Positions 32,125 to 32,342 of a stretch of 32,342 nt of DNA are shown here, piece by piece. How positions within the stretch are numbered: the first letter of the stretch is position 1; each line of letters opens with the position of its first letter. Where the stretch lies: positions 1 to 32,342 of the forward strand of contig JAKAIY010000028.1 of the NCBI GenBank assembly GCA_021814145.1, given 5' to 3'. Under the pieces are notes generated by a model. The model did no database searches. It worked only from the letters and a program-made list of their open reading frames with translations, and was not told where the DNA came from. The DNA comes from Chloroflexota bacterium (GTDB lineage Bacteria > Chloroflexota > Ktedonobacteria > Ktedonobacterales > JADMIN01). The position numbers and the translations under genes are program-made.

Positions 32125-32157
32125 AGATCTTCCCTCGTTCTCCGGTCTCGCCCGCCT

Positions 32158-32320
32158 CGGCCCGGCCTTGCAGGATACGGGATCAGCGCCGGGCTGTCCC
32201 AGGCAACTGTTCGGACTCATCCGGGCGAAGGGACGCGACGACCCAAGCTCTCCTACGGCCTCCCAGGGCCTGAGGGGGAAACGGCCTGTCGCGCCCATCT
32301 GTGGCGTATCATGACGCCAT
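32158..32320 (-). ncRNA. Candidate IS110 bridge RNA upstream of the transposase
   Basis: In the IS110 group the guide RNA is encoded just upstream of the transposase. In transposase orientation, this non-coding stretch shows a small hairpin TGGCGT-CATGAT-ACGCCA (32319-32302). A nested stem follows: GTCCC-ttcgcc-CGGA-tgag-TCCG-aacagttgcct-GGGAC (32234-32196). Last comes GCCCGGC-(21 nt)-GCCGGGC (32194-32160). The last two resemble the two looped stems (target- and donor-binding) of bridge RNAs. Boundaries are estimated by eye; no folding or covariance search was possible. Confidence 0.35.
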
Positions 32321-32342
32321 ACTACACGACTTTTCAGATACA

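What the first reader, a model, noticed from the sequence alone, without database searches (positions are those of the whole stretch)
32125..32342. Probable bridge RNA of an intact IS110 element
The transposase has all DEDD and Ser residues. Its upstream non-coding leader can form two looped stems, one with an inner hairpin and unpaired flanks like left and right guides. Such RNA-guided recombination elements are of high current interest, and the guides here could be read for target and donor specificity.
Basis: partly seen in the sequence, partly recalled or inferred. Interest (0 to 1): 0.6.

Follow-up and report, generated by a model that had tools for sequence, protein, structure and literature searches.

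The report
IS621-type bridge RNA of IS110 element
This is the guide RNA of a small IS110-type mobile DNA element, whose loops match both the element's own ends and the short repeat it inserted into; it is a well-supported but ordinary new member of the recently discovered bridge-RNA recombinase family.

Summary
Window 32125-32342 (minus strand) is exactly the non-coding left end of an intact IS110-group element. The element spans 31131-32342 with a CT core and encodes a 319-aa recombinase with D16/E60/D102/D105/S241. The left end encodes an IS621-type bridge RNA, whose modelled part is 32160-32295.

A covariance model built from 14 relatives, without the window, finds it at 95.6 bits. The helices covary strongly. 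All four guides are readable. The right target guide AGGAGAG pairs 7/7 with the right flank (CTCTCCT) of all three right-end copies in this genome. The left target guide UUCCCCCU matches the one known left flank 7/8, the eighth position being a G.U pair. The left donor guide ACAGUUGC matches the right end plus core 8/8. The right donor guide (AU...GCAAG) fits the left end.

Across relatives, target guides match their own flanks far better than shuffled ones: right guide 6.48/7 against 3.73, left guide 5.99/8 against 4.12. The target is one arm of a palindromic intergenic repeat (CCCCTCTCC...GGAGAGGGG).

This is a new member of a known kind. Transcription and activity were not tested. The junction promoter and the exact RNA ends are inferred.

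The parts
31131..32342 (-). IS110-group element without core copies (1212 bp); left end is base 32342, right end is base 31131
   Evidence: Three right-end copies (window, C25, C116) are identical up to CAGTTG-CT-CTCCT and then diverge; C202 continues past 32342 into flank after an exact 127-bp overlap
31129..31130 (-). CT core dinucleotide at the right end (the left core copy lies outside the window, C202 = L014:128-129)
   Evidence: Sequence; the same CT core at the junctions of relatives
31165..32124 (-). IS110 recombinase, 319 aa, catalytic D16, E60, D102, D105, S241
   Evidence: Pfam PF01548 E=5.7e-27 and PF02371 E=5.5e-19; IS621 chain 8wt6 E=2.9e-44, ISCro4 chain 9t56 E=1.5e-43; residue positions
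32125..32342 (-). Non-coding left end (218 nt) carrying the bridge RNA
   Evidence: Sequence and element ends
32160..32295 (-). [quoted passage not shown]
   Evidence: CM R1 106.8 bits; leave-one-out CM R2 95.6 bits, E=1e-17
32303..32318 (-). Candidate 5' hairpin GGCGUCAUGAUACGCC
   Evidence: In the predicted fold; not tested by covariation
32231..32296 (-). Target-binding loop: outer stem GGGCGCGAC/GUCGCGUCC and GGCC/GGUC, unpaired A at 32287
   Evidence: Covariation; layout as in the IS621 structure (PMC11208158)
32273..32280 (-). Left target guide UUCCCCCU
   Evidence: 7/8 with left flank TCCCCCCT in C202, the eighth position a G.U pair
32257..32270 (-). Inner hairpin of the target loop GGCC-CUGGGA-GGCC
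   Evidence: All cells paired in 15 sequences, 3 of 4 pairs change on both sides
32248..32254 (-). Right target guide AGGAGAG
   Evidence: Pairs 7/7 with CTCTCCT at all three right junctions in this genome
32160..32216 (-). Donor-binding loop: outer stem GUCC/GGGC, inner hairpin 32179-32200
   Evidence: Covariation
32203..32210 (-). Left donor guide ACAGUUGC
   Evidence: Identical (8/8) to right end ACAGTTG plus core C
32167..32176 (-). Right donor guide AU-CCU-GCAAG (discontiguous)
   Evidence: GCAAG and AU pair with core plus left end CTTGTAT in the scheme reported for IS621 (sequence)
31131..31164 (-). Right non-coding end (34 nt)
   Evidence: Sequence
31110..31130 (-). Right target flank: remaining half of a palindromic intergenic repeat
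   Evidence: Same repeat family as 14 perfect CCCCTCTCC..GGAGAGGGG palindromes in the genome, 0 in the reversed-pattern control

Best explanation
The feature is the bridge RNA of an intact IS110-group (IS621-like) insertion sequence. The recombinase would bind this left-end RNA. One loop (guides UUCCCCCU and AGGAGAG) pairs with the two strands of a CCCC-CT-CTCCT target inside intergenic palindromes. The other loop (guides ACAGUUGC and AU..GCAAG) pairs with the joined ends ACAGTTG-CT-TGTAT of the excised circle. The DEDD/Ser active sites then swap strands at the CT core and insert the circle. Shown here: ends, core, protein residues, RNA structure by covariation, and guide-to-flank and guide-to-end complementarity. 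Inferred: transcription from the joined ends, RNA binding, strand exchange and present-day activity.
For: Ends and core come from three right-end copies and one left flank. The recombinase is homologous to IS621 and ISCro4 over its whole length with all five catalytic residues. RNA structure: 94.7% of cells paired, 17/23 pairs with double changes, 0/500 shuffles, and collapse to under 50% when the partner is slid; leave-one-out model 95.6 bits. Guides against own flanks, relatives pooled: RTG mean 6.48/7 (n=63; permuted 3.73, sd 0.15, maximum of 2000 permutations 4.24); LTG mean 5.99/8 (n=68; permuted 4.12, sd 0.11, maximum 4.49). Window: RTG 7/7, LTG 7/8, LDG 8/8. The conserved unpaired A and linker G positions reported for IS621 have counterparts in the window and its relatives (A10, A36, A80, A114 and G15, G41, G85, G119 of the 137-nt core).
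Against: No transcript or activity data. Single-sequence folding is not better than shuffled. The junction promoter is weak: TTGCTT-17-TAGTAT, 4/6 at -10, and none reaches the consensus scan in the region scanned. Many relatives have a TTGACA box 18-20 nt before the core, but the window has only GCGACA at -22. The window copy's own left flank is unassembled, and the contig tail may be a consensus of several copies.
Confidence: 0.96

Rival explanations
1. The left end is only an untranslated leader or recombinase regulatory region (or an N-terminal extension of the ORF, which stays open upstream), and the stems are chance in G+C-rich DNA.
For: The frame is open through the whole left end; single-sequence energy is at the shuffle mean.
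Against: Compensatory changes in all four helices, a leave-one-out covariance model hit, and guide-to-flank matching specific to each element. Recombinase homology starts at residue 14 of the translated query.
Confidence: 0.02
2. It is a genuine but dead bridge RNA: the element is a relic that no longer transposes.
For: Junction promoter elements are weak; activity is untested.
Against: ORF, catalytic residues, both ends and all four guides are intact. At least three near-identical right-end copies (126 bp at 99%, 86 bp at 100%) sit at different sites, which points to recent movement.
Confidence: 0.1
3. The element belongs to the IS1111 group, with its guide RNA in the right end.
For: IS1111 elements share the recombinase type (PMC11208160).
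Against: The right end is only 34 nt, the left end 218 nt, and the RNA model matches only the left end.
Confidence: 0.01

Closest known systems
IS621 and its bridge RNA (Escherichia coli; PMC11208160, PMC11208158)
   Same: IS110 group; DEDD plus Ser recombinase (E=2.9e-44); CT core; RNA in the left end; target and donor loops each with inner hairpin; 8-nt left donor guide ending on the core C; discontiguous right donor guide AU..GCAAG; 7-nt right target guide as in the extended IS621 design; conserved unpaired A and linker G positions; insertion in palindromic intergenic repeats.
   Different: Different target guides (TTCCCC-CT-CTCCT); left target guide 8 rather than 9 nt; one more base in the right donor guide spacer; weak or shifted junction promoter.
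ISCro4 recombinase (PDB 9t56)
   Same: Recombinase homologous over residues 14-317 (E=1.5e-43).
   Different: Its RNA and target were not compared here.
IS1111-group elements / seekRNA (PMC11187229, abstract only)
   Same: Same recombinase type and RNA-guided target choice.
   Different: Guide RNA in the right end (PMC11208160) and subterminal inverted repeats; the right-end RNA does not apply here.

Membership tests
IS110 family | Recombinase with N-terminal DEDD domain (PF01548) and C-terminal domain with conserved Ser (PF02371) | tested here: met
   Both Pfam domains above cut-off; D16, E60, D102, D105, S241
IS110 family | Scarless insertion at a short core, no target duplication beyond the core | tested here: inconclusive
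   CT core at both kinds of junction, but no copy has both flanks assembled and no empty site was found
IS110 group (not IS1111) | Long left end holding the RNA, short right end | tested here: met
   Left end 218 nt with the model hit, right end 34 nt
IS621-type bridge RNA | Two internal loops with conserved secondary structure | tested here: met
   Covariation; leave-one-out model 95.6 bits
IS621-type bridge RNA | Target loop guides complementary to left and right target | tested here: met
   RTG 7/7 at three sites, LTG 7/8 at one; permutation test over relatives
IS621-type bridge RNA | Donor loop guides complementary to the element's joined ends | tested here: met
   LDG 8/8; RDG by reading the sequence against the IS621 scheme
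IS621-type bridge RNA | Promoter reconstituted at the joined ends | tested here: inconclusive
   TTGCTT-17-TAGTAT in the window; 28 of 60 relatives have a TTGACA-like box 18-20 nt before the core, the window has only GCGACA at -22
IS621-type bridge RNA | Transcribed, bound by the recombinase, needed for recombination | not testable with these tools
   Needs small-RNA sequencing and a recombination assay

The most novel reading that the evidence does not exclude
Bridge RNAs of IS110 elements in different bacterial lineages have repeatedly settled on the same widespread intergenic palindrome (CCTCACCC..CCCTCTCC - loop - GGAGAGGG) as target, making that repeat a general landing pad. Here 11 of 80 distinct guide sets carry GGAGAG in the right target guide, and several sit in such palindromes.
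Probability: 0.35. Interest if true: 0.4.

Novelty: new member of a known kind. Interest (0 to 1): 0.27.

Why it matters
Guides, core, donor and target can all be read from sequence alone, so the element adds a fully annotated natural bridge-RNA system with a G+C-rich palindrome target. The 90-match alignment behind it is an independent re-test of the published guide rules: right target guides match their own flanks almost perfectly.

Tried and rejected
Rfam scan: no family at gathering threshold, so it neither supports nor excludes. Single-sequence folding energy: uninformative. A first reading with the core one repeat unit further right (CTCT-CCT) was dropped. Placing the core at CAGTTG-CT makes the left donor guide 8/8, makes the right target guide 7/7, and agrees with the left junction. 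RNAalifold's extra LDG-RDG stem UUGC/GCAA was not accepted as structure, because both strands are guides to the two halves of the donor. Empty site in congeners: one genome has the neighbouring gene but unrelated intergenic sequence, and the flanks of the other two copies have no counterpart. Exact or one-mismatch 13-nt target search in the genome: 13 sites against 6 for the reversed control, weak on its own; the palindrome pattern is far clearer, 14 against 0. Short model hits at contig edges look like truncated copies rather than a short RNA class.

Full report
What is there. The window is the whole of contig C79 of a draft genome. Its right edge is one end of a mobile element. The first 127 bases of contig C202 equal window 32216-32342, then continue into unrelated sequence. 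This is the sign of an assembly that broke at a multi-copy repeat. At the other end, three copies of the right end (window, end of C25, start of C116) are identical through ...GTCACAGTTG-CT-CTCCT and then diverge. In recombinase orientation the left junction reads ATTCCCCC-CT-TGTATCTGAAAAG. So the element, without its cores, is window 31131-32342 (1212 bp). The recombinase is 31165-32124, the left end 32125-32342 (218 nt) and the right end 31131-31164 (34 nt).

Protein. The 319-aa product matches both IS110 Pfam domains. Its only solved relatives by sequence are IS621 (E=2.9e-44) and ISCro4. D16, E60, D102, D105 and S241 correspond to the IS621 catalytic residues D11, E60, D102, D105 and S241.

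RNA structure. Relatives of the recombinase were gathered from whole genomes and GTDB contigs, and their left ends were aligned. The consensus folding found both loops without being told them. Counting named pairs gave 94.7% paired cells and 17 of 23 pairs with changes on both sides. No shuffle of 500 reached this, and pairing fell below 50% on sliding the partner by one to three columns. A model from 14 relatives, the window left out, found the window at 95.6 bits, E about 1e-17. The model that includes the window hit 43 of 400 genomes of the same phylum and gave 90 matches in 94 loci. Single-sequence folding energy, by contrast, is no better than shuffled, and Rfam at its gathering thresholds is silent.

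Guides. In the published IS621 geometry (PMC11208158) the left target guide copies the left target plus core, and the right target guide is complementary to core plus right target. The donor guides do the same for the right and left ends of the element. In the window: left target guide UUCCCCCU against flank TCCCCCCT (7/8, the other position a G.U pair); right target guide AGGAGAG against CTCTCCT (7/7, at all three right junctions); left donor guide ACAGUUGC against ACAGTTG-C (8/8); right donor guide AU-CCU-GCAAG against CTTGTAT, in the interrupted IS621 manner. The bases right after the right target and right donor guides (C and G) pair with donor position 7 (G) and target position 7 (C), as described for handshake guides (sequence).

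Test over relatives. Left ends were located by the CTTGTAT motif and right ends by the left donor guide alone, independent of the target guides. Mean matches of the right target guide to its own flank were 6.48 of 7 (n=63); permuted flanks gave 3.73 (sd 0.15, maximum of 2000 permutations 4.24). The left target guide gave 5.99 of 8 (n=68) against 4.12 (sd 0.11, maximum 4.49). Related elements are not independent, so these are not exact probabilities, but the gap is very large. The right ends were required to show at least 6/8 agreement with the left donor guide, so the donor match over relatives is partly by construction. The 8/8 in the window stands on the three-copy boundary.

Target. The right flanks of C25 and C116 are the remaining halves of intergenic palindromes such as CCCCTCTCCTCCGCGGAGGAGAGGGG. 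The genome holds 14 perfect CCCCTCTCC(2-16)GGAGAGGGG palindromes, against none for the reversed pattern. Joining the C202 left flank with the C116 right flank restores CCCCCTCTCC-TTATG-GGAGAGGGGG, which suggests, but does not prove, that these two contigs flank one copy. Insertion into repetitive extragenic palindromic elements is known for IS110 elements (PMC11208160).

Expression. In the joined circle a weak promoter TTGCTT-17-TAGTAT spans the junction. Its -10 match rises to TATACT and TATAAT in some relatives; the mean -10 match over 48 junctions is 3.2 of 6 against 2.5 for shuffled left ends. In 28 of 60 relatives a TTGACA-like box lies 18-20 nt before the core, but the window has only GCGACA at -22. 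Promoter and transcript ends remain unsettled.

Verdict. The observation and the interpretation are both sound. The system is a new member of the IS110/IS621 bridge-RNA family, not a new kind. The most interesting by-product is the recurrent aim of bridge RNAs from different lineages at CTCTCC palindromes. The organism's taxonomy was not established here.

Noticed in passing
window 31152-31190: Near-perfect 39-bp palindrome (CCCCCTGGCAGGCTCAGGC.GCCTGAGCCTGCCAGGGGG) overlapping the recombinase stop codon, present in all three right-end copies and not evident in the relatives inspected; perhaps a transcription barrier.
   Followed up: partly
L131, L156, L075, L122, L076 (also L153, L164): Elements of different bacterial lineages have right target guides with GGAGAG and sit in, or beside a half of, CCTCACCC..CCCTCTCCC..GGGAGAGGG intergenic palindromes; 11 of 80 distinct guide sets carry GGAGAG.
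   Followed up: partly
L129:2730-2825 (minus strand): Bridge-RNA-like stretch with intact target loop but a donor loop missing its left guide and inner hairpin, with no adjoining recombinase ORF of its own evident; looks like a deletion between AGCC direct repeats.
   Followed up: partly
L126 (G005), left junction upstream of the bridge RNA at 2259-2387: A related element is inserted right after what looks like a tRNA 3' end (..GTTCGATTCCTGTCCCACCTGCCC-CT-TGTATG); not checked with a tRNA finder.
   Followed up: no
L014:1740-2030 (contig C202): Three near-identical tandem copies of an intergenic boilerplate (GGACCCCATCCGGCC..CCTTCCCCTC..GAGGGGAAGG), similar to window 31000-31050.
   Followed up: no
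window 25830-30980: Ordinary gene run beside the element: 2-oxoacid dehydrogenase E1 and E2 components, type III pantothenate kinase, pyridoxamine phosphate oxidase.
   Followed up: no
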